A DNA stretch of 8,826 bases, from contig ONXY01000153.1 of assembly GCA_900321945.1 (NCBI GenBank), forward strand, positions 1 through 8,826. The letters run 5' to 3'. The stretch is from an uncultured Eubacteriales bacterium (GTDB lineage Bacteria; Bacillota_A; Clostridia; Christensenellales; Aristaeellaceae). Numbering within the stretch: the first letter of the stretch is position 1; each line of letters begins with the position of its first letter. Position numbers and translations under genes: made by a program. Below, in pieces: positions 1,602 to 6,788 of the stretch. Below the pieces are notes generated by a model. The model was not told the DNA's origin, ran no database searches, and saw nothing but the letters and a program-made list of their open reading frames with translations.

Positions 1602-2371
1602 AATACCACATTGACACCATCCCCATCTGGGACGCGGCAAAAAAGGACGGCGAATGCCTGCTCTGCGCGCTGGAGAGGCGGACGGAGCTGGGAGAGGCGG
1701 ACCGCTATCTGGGAGCTTCCGTGATGGAGCCGGACGTACGCATCCGGGTCAATGAGAGAGGGTTCTGCCGGAAGCATCACGGAATGCTGTTCACCATGAG
1801 CAACCGGCTCGGGCACGCGCTTATGCTGGAAAGCCACATGATCGAAAACCGGGAGAGGCTGGAAAAAAGCTGGAAGGTTCTGGACCGGGCCGCGGATCAG
1901 CTGAGAAACGCCGGACTGGGCGACAGGCTGAACGGCAGAGCGAAAGCCTCAAAGGACGAGGTGGTCCGGGAGGCACGGAAGATTCAACAGATGGCCGGGA
2001 CCTGCGTCATGTGCGACACGATACAGGAAAACATGCTGCGCTACCTTCACACGTTCTTCCATCTGTATAAGAGCGACGGAGAGTTCCGGAAGCGTTTTCT
2101 GGAGGGAAAAGGACTCTGCATCCCGCACACGGGCCAGCTGCTGGAGGTCGCCGCCGAGGAGCTGAACAGCAAGGAACTGGGCGAGTTTGTCAGGGCGCTG
2201 GCGGGCATGGAAAAGGCGAATCTGGACCGGATTCAGGAAGATATCTCATGGTTCATCAAGAAATTTGACTACCGGTTCGAGAAGGAAGACTGGAAGAACA
2301 GCAGGGACGCGGTCGAACGTACCGTCAACAAAACCCGGGGCTGGTGCGTCGGGAAGGAACCGAACGATTAA
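1598..2371 (+). CDS. DUF6062 family protein with two CxxC...CxxH modules
   Basis: A cytoplasmic-looking 257-aa protein with no signal peptide or membrane segment, recognised by pattern as DUF6062, a Clostridia family of unknown function. Two matching metal-site-like modules are visible. Module 1 has C20-x2-C23, then GFCRKH with C57 and H60. Module 2 has C136-x2-C139, then GLCIPH with C174 and H177. The CxxC to CxxH spacing is nearly the same in both (34 and 35 residues), and each module is followed by a helical stretch, which suggests an internal duplication. A charged helix (about 82-130) links the halves, and the C-terminus is rich in Trp, Lys and Arg. The start is GTG at 1598, overlapping the stop of the dCMP deaminase gene by 4 bp. 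Zinc or Fe-S binding is inference; no catalytic motif is evident. Confidence 0.8.
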   Translation: MKYHIDTIPIWDAAKKDGECLLCALERRTELGEADRYLGASVMEPDVRIRVNERGFCRKHHGMLFTMSNRLGHALMLESHMIENRERLEKSWKVLDRAADQLRNAGLGDRLNGRAKASKDEVVREARKIQQMAGTCVMCDTIQENMLRYLHTFFHLYKSDGEFRKRFLEGKGLCIPHTGQLLEVAAEELNSKELGEFVRALAGMEKANLDRIQEDISWFIKKFDYRFEKEDWKNSRDAVERTVNKTRGWCVGKEPND

Positions 2372-2413
2372 GGGACAGCGCGGGATAAACGGAAAGCGAA
2401 GGGGGAACCGGAT

Positions 2414-2782
2414 ATGACCATTGGAGATGTGAAGGAGATTCTGGAGGCGAAGGTTCTGATCGGCGGCGACAGAATGAACGAGCCGGTGGACACCGCCTGC
2501 GGGTCCGATCTGATGAGCGACGTGCTGGCGTTCGTAAAGGAAAAGACCGTGCTGATCACGGGGCTGATCAATCCCCACGTGGTCCGGACCAGCGAGATGC
2601 TGGATATTACCTGCATTGTTTTTTCCAGGGGAAAACAGCCGAACGAGCTGATCCTGGAAGAGGCGGAGGAGTGCGGCATCACTGTGATGAGCACGGAGAT
2701 GACCACCTATACCGCGTGCGGAGAGCTGTATGTACACGGCCTGCCGGGAACCAAAAAAAGGACCGGCGCGGAAGGAGCGTGA
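2414..2782 (+). CDS. DRTGG-domain protein (hydrogenase-module type)
   Basis: A 122-aa single-domain protein resembling the DRTGG domain found beside CBS domains, in phosphotransacetylases, and as stand-alone proteins in clostridial [FeFe]-hydrogenase clusters. The start MTIGDVKEILEAKVL and the segment CGSDLMSDVLAF (29-40) are the most recognisable parts. They are followed by alternating strand/helix segments (TVLITGLINP, ITCIVFSRGK, GITVMSTEMT) typical of the alpha/beta fold. The literal DRTGG motif is absent, as in many stand-alone members, and the ligand is unknown. The start is ATG at 2414 after an AGGGGG-type purine run. The stop lies 3 bp before the next gene, which has its own AAGGAG site, so the two are surely co-transcribed. 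By context it may be a regulatory or small-ligand-binding partner of the sensory hydrogenase; that is inference. Confidence 0.78.
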   Translation: MTIGDVKEILEAKVLIGGDRMNEPVDTACGSDLMSDVLAFVKEKTVLITGLINPHVVRTSEMLDITCIVFSRGKQPNELILEEAEECGITVMSTEMTTYTACGELYVHGLPGTKKRTGAEGA

Positions 2783-2785
2783 CCC

Positions 2786-3211
2786 ATGGCGATCCTGCTG
2801 GAGAAGAACTTCCCCGTGGAGGCGGGAGCCTATGAGACGGCGGGCCAGGCTTCGACCGTGATCAAGAGAACGCTGAAGCAGCTGGGCGTAAGCGCAGAGG
2901 TGCTCCGGCGGGTCAGCGTGGCCTGCTACGAGGTGGAGCTGAACCTGGTGATTCATTCCGACGGCGGAACGCTGACATTGCAGATGGAGCCGGACAGGGT
3001 GACCCTGATCTCGAGGGACGTGGGCCCCGGAATTCCGGACATCGAAAAAGCTATGTCAGAAGGCTTTTCCACGGCCAACGAGGAGGCCAGGACGCTGGGC
3101 TTCGGCGCCGGCATGGGCCTGCCGAACATGAAACGGAACGCGACGGATTTTGATATTCAGAGCGAAATGGGCAAGGGAACCACAATTACCATGAGCTTCG
3201 CGCTGACGTAA
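2786..3211 (+). CDS. RsbW-like GHKL ATP-binding protein / anti-sigma-type serine kinase
   Basis: A compact 141-aa HATPase_c domain of the RsbW/SpoIIAB class, kinases that bind sigma factors or partners and phosphorylate a STAS antagonist. The N-box YEVELNLVIHS has E49 and N53 spaced as the catalytic Glu and Mg-binding Asn in SpoIIAB (E-x3-N). The G1 box DVGPGIPD (78-85) binds adenine, the lid/G2 box is GFGAGMGL (105-112) before PNMKR, and G3 is GKGTT (129-133). There is no sensor, HAMP or dimerisation domain, which fits a free-standing kinase rather than a histidine kinase. The start is ATG at 2786 with AAGGAG (2772-2777) 8 bp upstream. It sits between the DRTGG gene and the hydrogenase gene. 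No sigma factor, STAS protein or PP2C/SpoIIE phosphatase is in the window, so its partners must be encoded elsewhere or it acts differently here. Confidence 0.85.
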   Translation: MAILLEKNFPVEAGAYETAGQASTVIKRTLKQLGVSAEVLRRVSVACYEVELNLVIHSDGGTLTLQMEPDRVTLISRDVGPGIPDIEKAMSEGFSTANEEARTLGFGAGMGLPNMKRNATDFDIQSEMGKGTTITMSFALT

Positions 3212-3256
3212 GCGGCGATTCCGGACGACTGTCCGGCAAGGGAGACGGAAAGAAAA

Positions 3257-4552
3257 ATGGAGAATTCGACGCGTTTTCACTCGGTGCGGCTTGAAAAGGA
3301 GAAATGCCGCGCCTGCACCAACTGCCTGAAACGATGCCCCACGGAGGCGATCCGCGTCCGCGGCGGCAGCGCGCATATCATTGACGAACGCTGCATCGAC
3401 TGCGGAGAGTGCATCCGGGTCTGCAATTACCATGCCAAGGTGGCGGTAACGGATCCACTGAGCATCATCGACGAGTGGAAATACAAGATCGCGCTGCCCG
3501 CCCCAAGCCTGTACGGACAGTTCAAAAACCTGCAGAACATCAGCCAGCTGCTGTCCGCGCTGAAGGAACTGGGTTTCGACGACGTTTTCGAGGTGGCGCG
3601 GGGGGCGGACGTGGTCAGCAGGGCTATCCGGGAAAGGCTGAAGAACCCGGACACGCCGAGACCCATGATTTCCTCCGCCTGCCCCGCGATCGTAAGGCTG
3701 ATTCAGGTCCGGTTCCCGGATCTGATCGACCATATCGTGGACGTCCGGCAGCCCATGGAGGTGGCGGCGATGATCGCACGGCGCGAGTTCGCCAGGAAGC
3801 ATCAGGTGGACGAGCGGGATATCGGATGCTTCTTCCTGACACCGTGCCCGGCGAAGGTAACGGCTATCCGGAGCCCCATCGGACATGAAAAAAGCGCGGT
3901 GAACGGAGCCATCAGCGTCATGGAGATCTACGGGCCGCTCAGCGCAAAGATCCGGAAAGCGCCAACGGACGAGAACCTGAAGACATCCTCCGATTTCGGC
4001 GTCGGCTGGGCCCGGAGCGGTGGGGAAAGCGACGCGGTGTGCCCCATGGAGAGCATGGCCGTGGACGGCATCAACAACTGCATCCGCGTGCTGGAGGAAA
4101 TCGAGGACAACCGGCTCAACGGCCTCGAGTTCTTTGAAGGCGCGGCCTGCACGGGCGGTTGCGTGGGCGGTCCGCTGAACTTTGAAAACACTTATGTGGC
4201 GCGGAACTGGATCCGCCGGCTGGTGGATATCCGGGACGCGGATCTGAACGTGGAAAACGGGATGATGACCAAATACGATCTGTACGACAGCAAACGGATC
4301 ATGCCCAATTCCGCCATGAAGCTGGACGACGATCTGGTTGAGGCGCTGAGGAAGATGGAACGGATCGAGGAGATATTCGCGACGCTGCCGGGGTATGACT
4401 GCGGCAGCTGCGGAAGTCCCACATGCCGGACGTTCGCGGAGGATATCGTACAGGGCAAAGCAAGGGAAATGGACTGCATTCACCGGATGAAGGATCATCT
4501 GAAAGTTATGGCGCAGCAGATGGTCGATCTGGCTGAGACCACACGGGAATAA
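3257..4552 (+). CDS. Putative sensory-type [FeFe]-hydrogenase (group C/D-like) with ferredoxin and C-terminal Fe-S domains
   Basis: Probably a cytoplasmic H2 or redox sensor built on an [FeFe]-hydrogenase. Domains in order: a 2x[4Fe-4S] ferredoxin (C17, C20, C23, C27 and C46, C49, C52, C56); the H-cluster domain (about 75-350); then a [4Fe-4S] domain (C382, C385, C390, C407; YDCGSCGSPTC) and a short helix ending at 431. All four H-cluster ligands are present: C142 (SSACP, L1), C197 (TPCPAK, L2), C298 and C302 (EGAACTGGCVGG, L3). The L1 proton-relay Cys is A141, the L2 Met and Glu are T195 and A203, and the L3 Met is A296; K200 is kept. These changes match sensory rather than fast catalytic enzymes. 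Homologues often carry a C-terminal PAS domain, which is absent here. The start is ATG at 3257 with AAGGGAG upstream. The maturases HydEFG are not in the window. The family is certain; the sensory role is inference. Confidence 0.88.
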   Translation: MENSTRFHSVRLEKEKCRACTNCLKRCPTEAIRVRGGSAHIIDERCIDCGECIRVCNYHAKVAVTDPLSIIDEWKYKIALPAPSLYGQFKNLQNISQLLSALKELGFDDVFEVARGADVVSRAIRERLKNPDTPRPMISSACPAIVRLIQVRFPDLIDHIVDVRQPMEVAAMIARREFARKHQVDERDIGCFFLTPCPAKVTAIRSPIGHEKSAVNGAISVMEIYGPLSAKIRKAPTDENLKTSSDFGVGWARSGGESDAVCPMESMAVDGINNCIRVLEEIEDNRLNGLEFFEGAACTGGCVGGPLNFENTYVARNWIRRLVDIRDADLNVENGMMTKYDLYDSKRIMPNSAMKLDDDLVEALRKMERIEEIFATLPGYDCGSCGSPTCRTFAEDIVQGKAREMDCIHRMKDHLKVMAQQMVDLAETTRE

Positions 4553-4578
4553 ACAGAGAAGACAAGGAGAGACGGAAC

Positions 4579-4932
4579 ATGACGATTCGAGAGCTGATCG
4601 AACTGACGGGAGCCCGGAACATGACGCCGGACGCCGACCGGGAGACGGAGGTTACCTGCGGCTACACCTGCGACCTGCTGAGCTGGGTTATGGCTCACGG
4701 AAAAGCGGGTATGGCCTGGATCACGGTACAGACCCATATGAACGTTATCGCGGTGGCCAGCCTGATGGAAATGGCAGCGGTAATCATTCCGGAGGACATC
4801 GAGATGGAGGAGGCGACGCTGGCCAAGGCGAGAGAGGAAGGTATCTGCGTTCTGCAGAGCGGAAAGACGGCCTTTGACCTCTGCGCGCTGATGGCGCAGG
4901 CCGGGATTCCCGGAACGCCCCGGGAGGGATAA
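4579..4932 (+). CDS. Second, divergent DRTGG-like domain protein
   Basis: A 117-aa protein that reads as a diverged paralogue of the DRTGG gene upstream of the hydrogenase. Both open with MTI..., both have an early Cys-Gly followed by an Asp-Leu helix (CGSDLMSDVLAF there, CGYTCDLLSWVMA at 27-39 here), and both continue with a hydrophobic strand (AWITV), a helix, a VII-type strand and a C-terminal GI.VL strand. An extra Cys at C31 and a HGKAGMAW turn distinguish it. There is no membrane segment or signal peptide. The start is ATG at 4579 with a good AAGGAG (4564-4569) 9 bp upstream. It ends 3 bp before the PHP gene, whose ribosome site GGGAGGG overlaps its last codons. Placing one copy on each side of the hydrogenase suggests a heteromeric or dual-input regulator. 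Ligand and function are unknown. Confidence 0.72.
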   Translation: MTIRELIELTGARNMTPDADRETEVTCGYTCDLLSWVMAHGKAGMAWITVQTHMNVIAVASLMEMAAVIIPEDIEMEEATLAKAREEGICVLQSGKTAFDLCALMAQAGIPGTPREG

Positions 4933-4935
4933 TTC

Positions 4936-5625
4936 ATGTTCGCGGACCTGCACATACACAGCTGCCTGTCTCCCTGCGCTGACGACGACATGACGCCGGC
5001 CAACATCTGCGGGATGGCGCATATCAAGGGACTCGAGGCGATCGCCGTCACGGATCACAACACGGCGCGAAACCTGCCGTATGTGAAGGAGGCCGCTGAT
5101 TATTACGGCCTGATTCTTCTCCCGGGAATGGAGATCACGACAAAAGAAGAGGTGCATCTGCTGGGGTATTTCCGGGATGTGGAGACCGCGGTGAAAGTGG
5201 GCGAAATCTTCAGCAGTCATCTTCCGCCCATGAAAAACAGACCGGATTTCTTCGGAAATCAGCTGGTAATGAACACGGACGACGAAACGGTGGCCGTTGA
5301 GGAAAGGCTGCTGATCGGAGCGACCGATCTGACGCTGCAGGAATGCGCGGGGATCATCCGGGAGCACGGCGGAGCAGCCGTGCCGGCGCATATCAACAGG
5401 GGGCACGGACTGCTTGTAAACCTCGGTCTGTTTCCGGAGGATACTGAGTTTCCGGTGGTGGAGGTGCGGCCGGAGCTTCCGGTAAACGAAAAACTGATCG
5501 CGGGAAAACGCAGGCTCCGCTCGTCGGACGCGCATCGGCTCGGAGACATTCTTGAAGCGGTATTTGATCTGCCGACGGACCGGTTTTCCCCGGGAGGGTT
5601 GTTTGACGCGGTAAGCGGAAAGTGA
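4936..5625 (+). CDS. PHP-domain metal-dependent phosphoesterase
   Basis: A 229-aa PHP domain with the full set of metal ligands seen in this superfamily: DLHIHS (H6, H8), a Cys/Asp-rich turn CLSPCADDDMTP (10-21), VTDHN (D40, H41), GMEITT (E66), EVHLLGYF (H74), VPAHI (H152) and RSSDAH (D198, H200). These predict a di- or trinuclear Mn/Zn/Fe phosphoesterase such as a histidinol-phosphate phosphatase-like, trinucleotide or nucleotide-phosphate hydrolase. The CLSPC...DDDMTP turn is the form I associate with PHP proteins beside clostridial [FeFe]-hydrogenases, so it probably works with the module rather than in histidine synthesis. The start is ATG at 4936, 3 bp after the previous stop. The stop is followed by only 32 bp before yicC. 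The substrate is unknown. Confidence 0.85.
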   Translation: MFADLHIHSCLSPCADDDMTPANICGMAHIKGLEAIAVTDHNTARNLPYVKEAADYYGLILLPGMEITTKEEVHLLGYFRDVETAVKVGEIFSSHLPPMKNRPDFFGNQLVMNTDDETVAVEERLLIGATDLTLQECAGIIREHGGAAVPAHINRGHGLLVNLGLFPEDTEFPVVEVRPELPVNEKLIAGKRRLRSSDAHRLGDILEAVFDLPTDRFSPGGLFDAVSGK

Positions 5626-5640
5626 TACGATACCGCGGGG

Positions 5641-5650
5641 AAAGGAGAGG
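5641..5650 (+). promoter_or_regulatory. Ribosome binding site that fixes the yicC start at a TTG
   Basis: AAAGGAGAGG is the only strong Shine-Dalgarno match in the PHP-yicC gap. From AGGAG (5643-5647) the TTG at 5658 is 10 bp away and in frame, while the ATG at 5651 is out of frame and the in-frame ATG at 5667 is too far. The in-frame GTG at 5622 lies upstream of this site and would translate through it, so it is unlikely. Confidence 0.7.
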
Positions 5651-5657
5651 ATGCTTC

Positions 5658-6530
5658 TTGCAGAGCATGACGGGCGTCGGAACCGGCGGGGCCGCCCGGG
5701 ACGGCTGGGAGGTTACTGCGGAGCTTAAAACAGTGAACCACCGCTTTCTGGACGTGAATCTGCGGCTGCCCAGGAACCTGGCTTTTCTGGAGCCGGTGAC
5801 GCGGGAGAAACTGGCCGCGGCGCTGAAACGGGGACATGTGGAAGTGTTTCTGAACGTCCGGAACACCGAGGGAGGATCCCGGGAAGTTCAGACGGACGTG
5901 AGCCTGGCGAAGGCCTACGCGAAGGCGGCGGCTGAAATCGCGGAGGCCACGGGCATGAAAAGGCATATGACCGTCAGGGAACTGATGGGGCTTGAGGGCG
6001 TCGTAACGCTGGCGGAGCGGGAGATGGACCCCGAACTGGTCCGCGGGCTCTGCGCCGAGGCTCTGGATACAGCCCTTGAACAGCTGAACGCCACGCGCGC
6101 GCGGGAGGGCGTCCATCTCCGGGAGGATCTGAAACTGCACCTGGACGCGGCCGCGCGGCTGAGGGAAGAGATCCTGAAGAGAGCGCCGCAGGTGGTGCAG
6201 GATTACAGAAGCCGCCTGGAGAGCCGGATGGCTCAGCTCGGCGCCTCGGGGGCCGAGCCTCAGCGTCTGGCCCAGGAGGTGGCGCTGATGGCGGACCGTT
6301 GCGCCGTCGACGAGGAGCTTTCCCGTCTGGACAGCCATATCGCACAGATGAACCGCTATCTGAACGCGGAGGAGGAAGTCGGTAAAAAAATGGATTTCCT
6401 GATTCAGGAAATGAACCGGGAAGCGAATACCATCGGGTCCAAGGCCTCGGACGCGGCGATCGCTCAGATGGTCGTGAATCTGAAAAGCGAAATCGAGAAA
6501 ATGAGAGAACAGATCCAGAATGTGGAGTAA
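5658..6530 (+). CDS. yicC: YicC/YloC family endoribonuclease
   Basis: An RNase of the YicC family. E. coli YicC is implicated in small-RNA turnover, and YloC is the Bacillus counterpart. With the TTG start at 5658 the protein is 290 aa, the family's usual length, and begins QSMTGVG, matching the conserved SMTGFG opening. The N-terminal YicC domain continues with ELKTVNHRFLDVNLRLP, a very conserved stretch. The C-terminal DUF1732 part ends with the hallmark GKKMDFLIQEMNREANTIGS and a final EKMREQIQNVE. The in-frame GTG at 5622 would add 12 residues with no family match and overlap the PHP stop, so it was not chosen. It lies 32 bp after the PHP gene and 3 bp before remA, whose ribosome site (GTGGAG) overlaps its last codons. 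The order yicC-remA-gmk-rpoZ-coaBC is the standard Bacillota arrangement. Confidence 0.93.
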   Translation: MQSMTGVGTGGAARDGWEVTAELKTVNHRFLDVNLRLPRNLAFLEPVTREKLAAALKRGHVEVFLNVRNTEGGSREVQTDVSLAKAYAKAAAEIAEATGMKRHMTVRELMGLEGVVTLAEREMDPELVRGLCAEALDTALEQLNATRAREGVHLREDLKLHLDAAARLREEILKRAPQVVQDYRSRLESRMAQLGASGAEPQRLAQEVALMADRCAVDEELSRLDSHIAQMNRYLNAEEEVGKKMDFLIQEMNREANTIGSKASDAAIAQMVVNLKSEIEKMREQIQNVE

Positions 6531-6533
6531 AAA

Positions 6534-6788
6534 ATGCAGCTGGTGAACATCGGATACGGAAACATGGTTGCGGCCGGTCGGGTGGTAGCCGTGGTTTCCC
6601 CGGAAGCCGCGCCGGTACGCCGGATGATTCAGGACGCCAGGGACCGGGGTCATGTCATCGACGCGACCTGCGGCCACAAGACCAAAGCGGTTTTGGTGAT
6701 GGATTCCGAGCATGTGGTTCTGAGCCCTCTGATGCCGGAAACCATCGCGGGAAGAATGAACACCCGAAAGGAGACGGAGCAGGCGTGA
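6534..6788 (+). CDS. remA: RemA-like extracellular matrix regulator (DUF370)
   Basis: A small 84-aa DNA-binding protein. In Bacillus subtilis RemA activates biofilm matrix and osmoprotection genes and forms ring-like oligomers. Hallmarks present: LVNIGYGN (3-10), R16 corresponding to the functionally important R18 of B. subtilis, VVSPEAAPVRRMIQDARDRG (20-39), IDATCG, and VVLSPLMPETIA near the end. Compared with the usual GRRTRA loop this protein has GHKTKA (47-52), so two or three arginines thought to contact DNA are His or Lys. The start is ATG at 6534, 3 bp after yicC. Its TGA overlaps the GTG start of gmk (GTGA, 6785-6788), so the two are translationally coupled. In Clostridia without a Bacillus-type matrix the regulon is unknown. 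Confidence 0.92.
   Translation: MQLVNIGYGNMVAAGRVVAVVSPEAAPVRRMIQDARDRGHVIDATCGHKTKAVLVMDSEHVVLSPLMPETIAGRMNTRKETEQA

What the first reader, a model, noticed from the sequence alone, without database searches (positions are those of the whole stretch)
2414..5625. Five-gene sensory-hydrogenase module: DRTGG, RsbW-like kinase, [FeFe]-hydrogenase, DRTGG, PHP phosphoesterase
Seen: five same-strand genes with gaps of 3-45 bp that pair a divergent [FeFe]-hydrogenase with a free-standing anti-sigma-type kinase, two DRTGG-like proteins and a metallophosphoesterase. Known: similar gene sets occur in Clostridia, normally near electron-bifurcating hydrogenase genes. Inference: this is a complete H2 or redox signalling system in which the hydrogenase is the sensor, the kinase does partner switching, and the PHP enzyme makes or destroys a phosphorylated signal. 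To my knowledge neither its signal nor its output has been established.
Basis: partly seen in the sequence, partly recalled or inferred. Interest (0 to 1): 0.78.

Follow-up and report, generated by a model that had tools for sequence, protein, structure and literature searches.

The report
Hydrogenase-linked kinase signalling gene cluster
Five neighbouring genes, in a bacterium whose nearest named relatives come from cow and deer stomachs, form a widely conserved sensor-like unit in which an unusual hydrogenase is tied to a small kinase and a small partner protein; its target is unknown, and many relatives that carry it seem to lack the known genes for building the hydrogenase's metal centre.

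Summary
The five genes are real and sit where stated. The hydrogenase has every tested sequence mark of a group D ("HydS") putative sensor. In the 80 closest loci the kinase gene lies upstream of HydS in 79 of 80, DRTGG1 is present in 76, DRTGG2 in 70, PHP in 69, all five in 68; order is colinear in 80 of 80, while window flanks are kept in 0-17. Natural fusions join kinase to HydS (two protein clusters) and DRTGG to the HydS C-terminus (three). So kinase, HydS and DRTGG1 very likely form one signalling unit. Classical STAS/sigma partner switching is not required: 4 of 50 module genomes, one an isolate, show no STAS domain. AlphaFold pseudo-fusions gave no confident interface. In the window's clade the unit lies beside housekeeping genes, not hydABC. 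Unexpected: in a 120-genome sample of the nearest family, 91 have no detectable HydE, HydF or HydG, yet 69 of those keep HydS and 85 a catalytic-type [FeFe]-hydrogenase; H-cluster ligands, Lys200, E257 and E294 of HydS are invariant in 32 of 32 HydG-less relatives. Whether the sensor carries an H-cluster there is open.

The parts
2414..2782 (+). DRTGG1, 122 aa: small DRTGG-domain protein, candidate direct partner of HydS and kinase; invariant S35 and T59 (77 of 77 sequences)
   Evidence: Pfam PF07085; conservation in 76 homologues plus window; DRTGG1-type domain fused to the HydS C-terminus in P0124, P0126, P0137
2786..3211 (+). RsbW/SpoIIAB-like HATPase, 141 aa: candidate Ser/Thr kinase; ATP-site residues E49, N53, H57, D78, G80, G82 in 80 of 80
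   Evidence: Pfam PF02518/PF13581; SpoIIAB structures as nearest PDB match, E=1.2e-6; conservation; fused to HydS in P0123 and P0125
3257..4552 (+). HydS, 431 aa: group D-type [FeFe]-hydrogenase; 8 N-terminal cluster Cys, H-cluster ligands C142, C197, C298, C302, K200, E257 and E294, C-terminal cluster C382-x2-C385-x4-C390-x16-C407; A141 in place of the group A proton-relay Cys
   Evidence: Pfam, PDB alignment, conservation over 81 sequences
3677..3682 (+). HydS A141-C142: relay cysteine replaced by Ala next to the retained H-cluster ligand
   Evidence: sequence; A in 77 and S in 4 of 81 sequences at 141, C in 81 of 81 at 142
3839..3856 (+). HydS T195-P-C197-P-A-K200: Met353-equivalent is Thr, ligand Cys and conserved Lys retained
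   Evidence: T 66, S 14, A 1 of 81 at 195; C197 and K200 81 of 81
4400..4477 (+). HydS C-terminal [4Fe-4S] site Cx2Cx4Cx16C
   Evidence: all four Cys in 81 of 81 sequences
4579..4932 (+). DRTGG2, 117 aa: divergent DRTGG-fold protein with invariant D32-L-L-S35 (71 of 71)
4936..5625 (+). PHP metallophosphoesterase, 229 aa; H6, H8, H41, E66, H74 in 70 of 70, D198 and H200 in 67 of 70 sequences (their role as metal ligands is recalled, not tested)

Best explanation
A group D sensory [FeFe]-hydrogenase unit. Constant core: HydS plus an RsbW/SpoIIAB-like HATPase kinase, with DRTGG1 as their immediate partner. Shown: gene identities, conserved colinearity, natural fusions of kinase and of DRTGG to HydS, conserved ATP site, H-cluster and Fe-S ligands, conserved PHP motif residues. 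Inferred: H2 or redox state at the HydS active site changes HydS conformation, which switches the kinase bound to it; the kinase acts on, or is titrated by, DRTGG1 docked at the HydS C-terminal Fe-S end (the position that a PAS domain takes in group C enzymes). The DRTGG2-PHP pair is an add-on that reverses or relays the signal, the PHP enzyme being a metal-dependent phosphatase for a DRTGG phosphosite (S35 as candidate) or for a nucleotide bound by DRTGG. Output is most likely control of the bifurcating hydrogenase HydABC or of fermentation genes. Step confidences: one functional unit 0.95; kinase contacts HydS 0.8; DRTGG1 contacts HydS/kinase 0.75; signal is H2 or redox at the H-cluster 0.55; DRTGG is phosphorylated 0.35; PHP acts on that product 0.3.
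For: Colinear in 80 of 80 loci; kinase 79 of 80 (the miss, L037, is cut by the contig end), gap to HydS at most 881 bp and 50 bp or less in 52 of 79; DRTGG1 76, DRTGG2 70, PHP 69; median gaps -1, 35, 15.5, 3 bp. Kinase-HydS fusions P0123 and P0125; HydS-DRTGG fusions P0124, P0126, P0137; one DRTGG2-PHP fusion P0153. All tested group D sequence marks as described for TamHydS (PMC8163306, passages read). Residues matching TamHydS E252/E289 (PMC10407848, passages read) are kept in 80 and 81 of 81. Where DRTGG1 is missing although the contig reaches, other genes stand there: CheW in L066, an OmpR-type response regulator in L056, ECF-transporter-like genes in L061 (read from the sequence only).
Against: AlphaFold pseudo-fusions with paired read-through alignments gave well-folded domains but no confident relative placement: DRTGG1-kinase-HydS pLDDT 86.2, pTM 0.67, 27 sequences; DRTGG2-PHP pLDDT 89.2, pTM 0.65, 14 sequences. 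PMC13104023 (passages read) reports that the TamHydS C-terminal cluster is not reduced by H2, so signalling by redox change of that cluster is unlikely. Many carriers have no detectable HydE/F/G, which questions H2 as the signal there. The DRTGG-fused HydS are themselves atypical (Arg for Lys200). No kinase activity, phosphosite or output is known.
Confidence: 0.5

Rival explanations
1. H-cluster-free redox or Fe-S sensor: in much of this family HydS carries only its [4Fe-4S] clusters and senses redox or Fe-S status rather than H2.
For: No HydE/F/G found in 91 of 120 family genomes, 69 of which keep HydS; HydS-DRTGG fusions carry Arg at the conserved Lys and Tyr at the relay position, 3 of 3.
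Against: The four ligands, Lys200, E257 and E294 are invariant in 32 of 32 HydG-less HydS with mean pairwise identity 0.61, as if the pocket were still needed; HydA of HydG-less genomes keeps the same motifs as HydA of HydG-bearing ones.
Confidence: 0.22
2. Classical partner switching: the kinase is an anti-sigma factor that binds a sigma factor and is released by a STAS antagonist elsewhere in the genome.
For: Nearest solved relatives are SpoIIAB; STAS proteins are found in 46 of 50 module genomes; in L018 a STAS gene lies about 0.9 kb downstream of HydS.
Against: No STAS match in 4 of 50 module genomes including Coprothermobacter platensis; score 51.2 against a cut-off of 135 for the SpoIIAB model; of 16 recurrent neighbour clusters besides comEB and DUF6062, one member of each of 11 was scanned and none is a sigma or STAS protein; 5 were not scanned.
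Confidence: 0.1
3. Metabolic, not signalling: HydS is a slow catalytic or electron-transfer accessory of HydABC and the small proteins are assembly or activity factors for that complex.
For: HydA lies downstream in 31 of 55 loci with more than 7 kb downstream; TamHydS is catalytically competent though slow (PMC8163306, passages read).
Against: 24 of those 55 loci have no HydA there; relay Cys lost in 81 of 81; the fusions are to kinase and DRTGG, not to electron carriers.
Confidence: 0.13
4. Nucleotide signal: PHP makes or degrades a small nucleotide that the DRTGG domains bind, and the kinase is an ATPase switch rather than a protein kinase.
For: Fold neighbours of PHP include an enzyme solved with AMP bound (2yb1) and RNase AM; DRTGG neighbours 3l31/3l2b are regulatory domains of a pyrophosphatase solved as complexes.
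Against: Fold similarity shows no substrate; ligand of these DRTGG proteins untested.
Confidence: 0.2

Closest known systems
Group D (M2e) [FeFe]-hydrogenase TamHydS of Thermoanaerobacter mathranii (PMC8163306, PMC10407848, PMC13104023; passages read)
   Same: Cluster-binding motifs, relay Cys lost, Ser/Thr at the Met353 position, no PAS domain, flanking HATPase gene; five-gene order and Pfam domains confirmed here in T. wiegelii (L051)
   Different: Window clade lies away from hydABC. The paper names an AraC regulator on one side; in T. wiegelii the gene directly downstream of HydS is a DRTGG protein with no helix-turn-helix family at E<=0.01; T. mathranii itself was not checked
Group C sensory hydrogenases (TmHydS, HfsB, R. 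albus HydS; HydDB C1-C3: histidine-kinase, chemotaxis, phosphatase linked; PMC5037454 and PMC5707799, passages read)
   Same: Same core with C-terminal Fe-S domain; regulatory role supported by hfsB deletions raising ethanol yield
   Different: Group C fuses PAS after the Fe-S domain; here the partner is free-standing, and the natural fusions put DRTGG there (the hydrogenase beside HydS in L056 puts an MCP signalling domain there)
SpoIIAB/RsbW anti-sigma kinases
   Same: HATPase family and conserved boxes
   Different: Scores 51.2 bits against an equivalog cut-off of 135; no STAS or sigma partner in the operon; tied to HydS instead
DRTGG regulatory domains of CBS-pyrophosphatase and AF1212 (2ioj, 3l31)
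   Same: Fold
   Different: Stand-alone and hydrogenase-linked; the S35 position is Gln in 2ioj in a weak alignment

Membership tests
Group D [FeFe]-hydrogenase | two N-terminal [4Fe-4S] motifs | tested here: met
   8 Cys in 81 of 81
Group D [FeFe]-hydrogenase | C-terminal Cx2Cx4Cx16C cluster motif | tested here: met
   C382/385/390/407 in 81 of 81
Group D [FeFe]-hydrogenase | no PAS domain | tested here: met
   no PAS in Pfam scan of the window protein
Group D [FeFe]-hydrogenase | relay Cys lost; Met353 replaced by Ser/Thr | tested here: met
   A141 and T195 in window; A/S 81 of 81 and T/S 80 of 81
Group D [FeFe]-hydrogenase | place in the group D clade of a hydrogenase tree | not tested
   no tree was built; T. 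wiegelii HydS is 53% identical over 422 residues
Group D [FeFe]-hydrogenase | holds an H-cluster and turns over H2 | not testable with these tools
   ligands present; HydF and HydG not found in the relatives' genomes G001-G003
SpoIIAB/RsbW anti-sigma kinase | HATPase boxes with the conserved Glu and Asn | tested here: met
   80 of 80
SpoIIAB/RsbW anti-sigma kinase | score over SpoIIAB equivalog cut-off | tested here: not met
   51.2 against 135 bits
SpoIIAB/RsbW anti-sigma kinase | STAS partner | tested here: inconclusive
   none in the module and none found in 4 of 50 module genomes, but STAS proteins exist elsewhere in 46 of 50
DRTGG family | PF07085 over cut-off | tested here: met
   DRTGG1 35.6 bits against 25.2; 29.6 in L051, but 18.7 in L055
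DRTGG family (DRTGG2) | PF07085 over cut-off | tested here: not met
   15.2 against 25.2 in window; orthologues in L051 and L055 pass; fold agrees
PHP phosphoesterase | PF02811 and conserved motif residues | tested here: met
   28.9 against 26.4; residues

The most novel reading that the evidence does not exclude
A large family of gut and rumen Clostridia assembles functional [FeFe]-hydrogenases, sensory and bifurcating, without HydE, HydF and HydG, i.e. by an undescribed H-cluster maturation route, and the HydS-kinase-DRTGG unit senses H2 in these cells through that cofactor.
Probability: 0.22. Interest if true: 0.92.

Novelty: new variant of a known kind. Interest (0 to 1): 0.62.

Why it matters
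How group D hydrogenases pass on a signal is an open question in the papers of which I read passages (PMC8163306, PMC13104023). The fusions name the partners, kinase at one end and DRTGG at the other, so binding, phosphotransfer and deletion tests become direct. The missing maturases in HydS- and HydA-bearing genomes pose a sharp, testable problem: either H-cluster assembly has another route, or hydrogenase-like proteins work without it, or the maturases sit where genome bins do not reach.

Tried and rejected
Tried and led nowhere: alignments A1 and A2 misplaced DRTGG1 and PHP rows and were dropped; replaced by paired read-through alignments A3 and A4. Structure prediction of pseudo-fusions gave no confident interface; the tool reports no contact errors, so this is inconclusive, not negative. 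The promoter/terminator scan of 2200-5800 is no better than shuffles. No Rfam hit or tRNA in the window. Comparing the HydEFG flank of G004 with a remnant hit in G005 gave no alignable synteny. Paper searches: sensory hydrogenase, DRTGG, PHP domain, any two: 0 papers; 'DRTGG domain' with hydrogenase: 1 unrelated paper; six terms on missing HydE/F/G in MAGs: 0; a wider search: 1, listing only; HydEFG with lack and maturation: 26 papers, 20 listed, listing only except papers opened for other reasons; group D neighbourhood: 23, 20 listed. Zheng 2014 is not held; Calusinska 2010 was not looked up and not read.

Considered and rejected: MAG incompleteness as the full explanation of missing maturases (the same genomes yield PF02906 hits in 114 of 120; G067, with a 3.97 Mb contig of a 4.2 Mb genome, shows none of the three); low sensitivity for HydG (a family-specific query finds the same 20 genomes). 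Not excluded: plasmid-borne or very divergent maturases; the HydF search over 120 genomes was capped at E<=1e-60 and scored 14 first-look candidates a genome.
Full report
What is there. The window is a housekeeping stretch, birA, comEB, DUF6062, then the five genes of the finding, then yicC, remA, gmk, rpoZ, coaBC (gmk and coaBC named from sequence, not scanned). No whole genome is held for the window itself, so genome-level statements concern relatives.

The hydrogenase. HydS has two N-terminal [4Fe-4S] motifs, the hydrogenase domain and a C-terminal Cx2Cx4Cx16C site, no PAS domain, Ala in place of the group A proton-relay Cys, and Thr at the Met353 position. These are the marks given for group D (M2e) enzymes with TamHydS as model (PMC8163306, passages read). 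The two glutamates altered in the study of its alternative proton path (PMC10407848, passages read) correspond to E257 and E294 if numbering is shifted by five, and are kept in 80 and 81 of 81 sequences. The four H-cluster ligands, Lys200 and all twelve accessory Cys are invariant in 81 of 81; positions 195 and 296 vary.

Conservation of the module. In these 80 loci the kinase is present in 79 (L037 is cut by the contig end), DRTGG1 in 76 (L056, L061 and L066 lack it, L037 is cut), DRTGG2 in 70, PHP in 69, all five in 68; order is colinear in 80 of 80. Of 71 loci with more than 1.8 kb downstream, 64 have both DRTGG2 and PHP and 7 have neither. Median gaps are -1, 35, 15.5 and 3 bp; the longest kinase-HydS gap is 881 bp. 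The flanks act as a control: birA 0, comEB 13, DUF6062 17, and yicC, remA, gmk, rpoZ and coaBC 2 each, of 80, with some loci cut short. These 80 are the closest relatives of HydS, so conservation further out is not measured.

Neighbourhood. Of 55 loci with more than 7 kb downstream, 31 have a HydA there; the script counted 32, but the extra one, L056, is a hydrogenase-MCP protein. The usual downstream order is a thioredoxin-like [2Fe-2S] protein, a second HATPase, a small protein without Pfam match, HydB (Complex1_51K), HydA. In L002, G146, G068 and G133, as in the window, the module instead lies between comEB-DUF6062 and yicC-remA-gmk-rpoZ-coaBC; L001 agrees but its contig starts within DUF6062. 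G002 carries hydB-hydA on another contig. L005-L008 keep comEB-DUF6062 upstream and hydB-hydA downstream, so the window clade probably split an older arrangement.

Who talks to whom. The read-through of DRTGG1, kinase and HydS was used as a query so that natural fusions would surface (120 of 7,958 hits listed). P0123 and P0125 are kinase-HydS fusions; P0124, P0126 and P0137 are HydS-DRTGG fusions with the DRTGG1-type domain after the C-terminal Fe-S domain, where group C enzymes carry PAS. P0153 is a single DRTGG2-PHP fusion. Linkers of P0125, P0126 and P0153 hold no Met; those of P0123, P0124 and P0137 do, so a lost stop between neighbours is less easily excluded there. Where DRTGG1 is missing other genes stand in its place: CheW in L066; a response regulator in L056, whose downstream neighbour is a hydrogenase-Fe-S-MCP protein; ECF-transporter-like genes in L061 (read from sequence). 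So kinase plus HydS is the constant pair. Paired read-through alignments gave confident domains but low joint placement (pTM 0.67 and 0.65), inconclusive.

Mechanism. The kinase keeps its ATP site (80 of 80) but falls below the SpoIIAB model cut-off (51.2 against 135), and Coprothermobacter platensis (L055, an isolate) has the whole module and no STAS match; 46 of 50 module genomes do have STAS proteins. STAS-based switching is therefore not required, though not excluded in the other 46. I propose that DRTGG takes the partner's place. S35 is invariant in DRTGG1 (77 of 77) and DRTGG2 (71 of 71) and aligns with Gln in 2ioj; it is a candidate phosphosite, nothing more. PHP keeps its motif residues and could be the phosphatase; nucleotide substrates are equally open. 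PMC13104023 (passages read) reports that the TamHydS C-terminal cluster is not reduced by H2, and cites H2-induced secondary-structure change, so a conformational rather than redox relay to the C-terminus fits best.

The missing maturases. In 120 genomes drawn from the family of G004 (completeness of at least 90 was asked, but no values were shown): hydrogenase domain at E<=1e-60 in 114, HydS at E<=1e-130 in 91, HydE over cut-off in 24, HydF at E<=1e-60 in 29, HydG over cut-off in 20; a family-specific HydG query finds the same 20 strongly. None of the three, counting also three HydE-like matches below cut-off as present, in 91; of these 69 keep HydS, 85 the catalytic-type hydrogenase, 65 both. 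Weaker HydE matches (E above 1e-7) in some of the 91 were taken as other radical-SAM proteins. G067, with HydA and HydS on a 3,971,881-base contig, has none. Its HydA is most similar to HydA of the bifurcating complex 7q4v (813 bits), and HydA motifs in HydG-less genomes are those of HydG-bearing ones; both, like 7q4v, read TSCSPGW where CpI has TSCCPGW. In HydS the four ligands, Lys200, E257 and E294 are invariant in 32 of 32 HydG-less (two of these have HydF) and 18 of 18 HydG-bearing relatives. This is either loss from the bins (plasmids), divergent maturases, another assembly route, or H-cluster-free function. Three HydS-DRTGG fusions with Arg for Lys200 and Tyr at the relay position suggest that H-cluster-free descendants may exist.

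Novelty. The hydrogenase class and its neighbourhood with a HATPase are known (PMC8163306; PMC3608648 mentions a histidine kinase and a group D-like hydrogenase upstream of bifurcating genes, passages read). In the searches made (listings, plus passages of the papers named) I found no description of the DRTGG/PHP partners, the fusions or the missing maturases; the library lacks most subscription papers. Verdict: a new variant of a known kind of putative sensor, with partners now named and one sharp paradox.

Noticed in passing
family of G004, 120 genomes: 91 of 120 genomes have no detectable HydE, HydF or HydG; 85 of these carry a catalytic-type [FeFe]-hydrogenase and 69 carry HydS.
   Followed up: partly
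G041, G085, G112; G045, G054; G080, G083, G148, G153: Partial maturase sets: HydF with a HydE-like protein below cut-off, HydF alone, or HydE and HydF without HydG.
   Followed up: no
P0124, P0126, P0137: HydS-DRTGG fusions with Arg at the conserved Lys near the H-cluster site and Tyr at the relay position; P0137 is labelled as from a Pseudomonadota MAG.
   Followed up: partly
L066:9053-9978; L056:8648-13317: CheW gene, or response regulator plus a hydrogenase-MCP protein, next to the kinase-HydS pair, linking it to chemotaxis-type signalling.
   Followed up: partly
L018:12199-13090: STAS gene and a small ORF without a Pfam match (ATPase-like to the eye) downstream of HydS, where DRTGG2-PHP is missing.
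   Followed up: no
L051:11312-11644: Gene directly downstream of HydS in T. wiegelii is a DRTGG protein with no helix-turn-helix family found; the TamHydS paper names an AraC regulator as a flanking gene in T. mathranii.
   Followed up: partly
window 5622-5625: The yicC ORF as listed (GTG start) overlaps the PHP end by 4 bases, though an ATG at 5667 is also possible; the module may be cotranscribed with the housekeeping genes downstream.
   Followed up: no
window, minus strand (for example 3056-4498, 5259-6713): Long antisense ORFs of 480-484 codons, probably a by-product of base composition.
   Followed up: no
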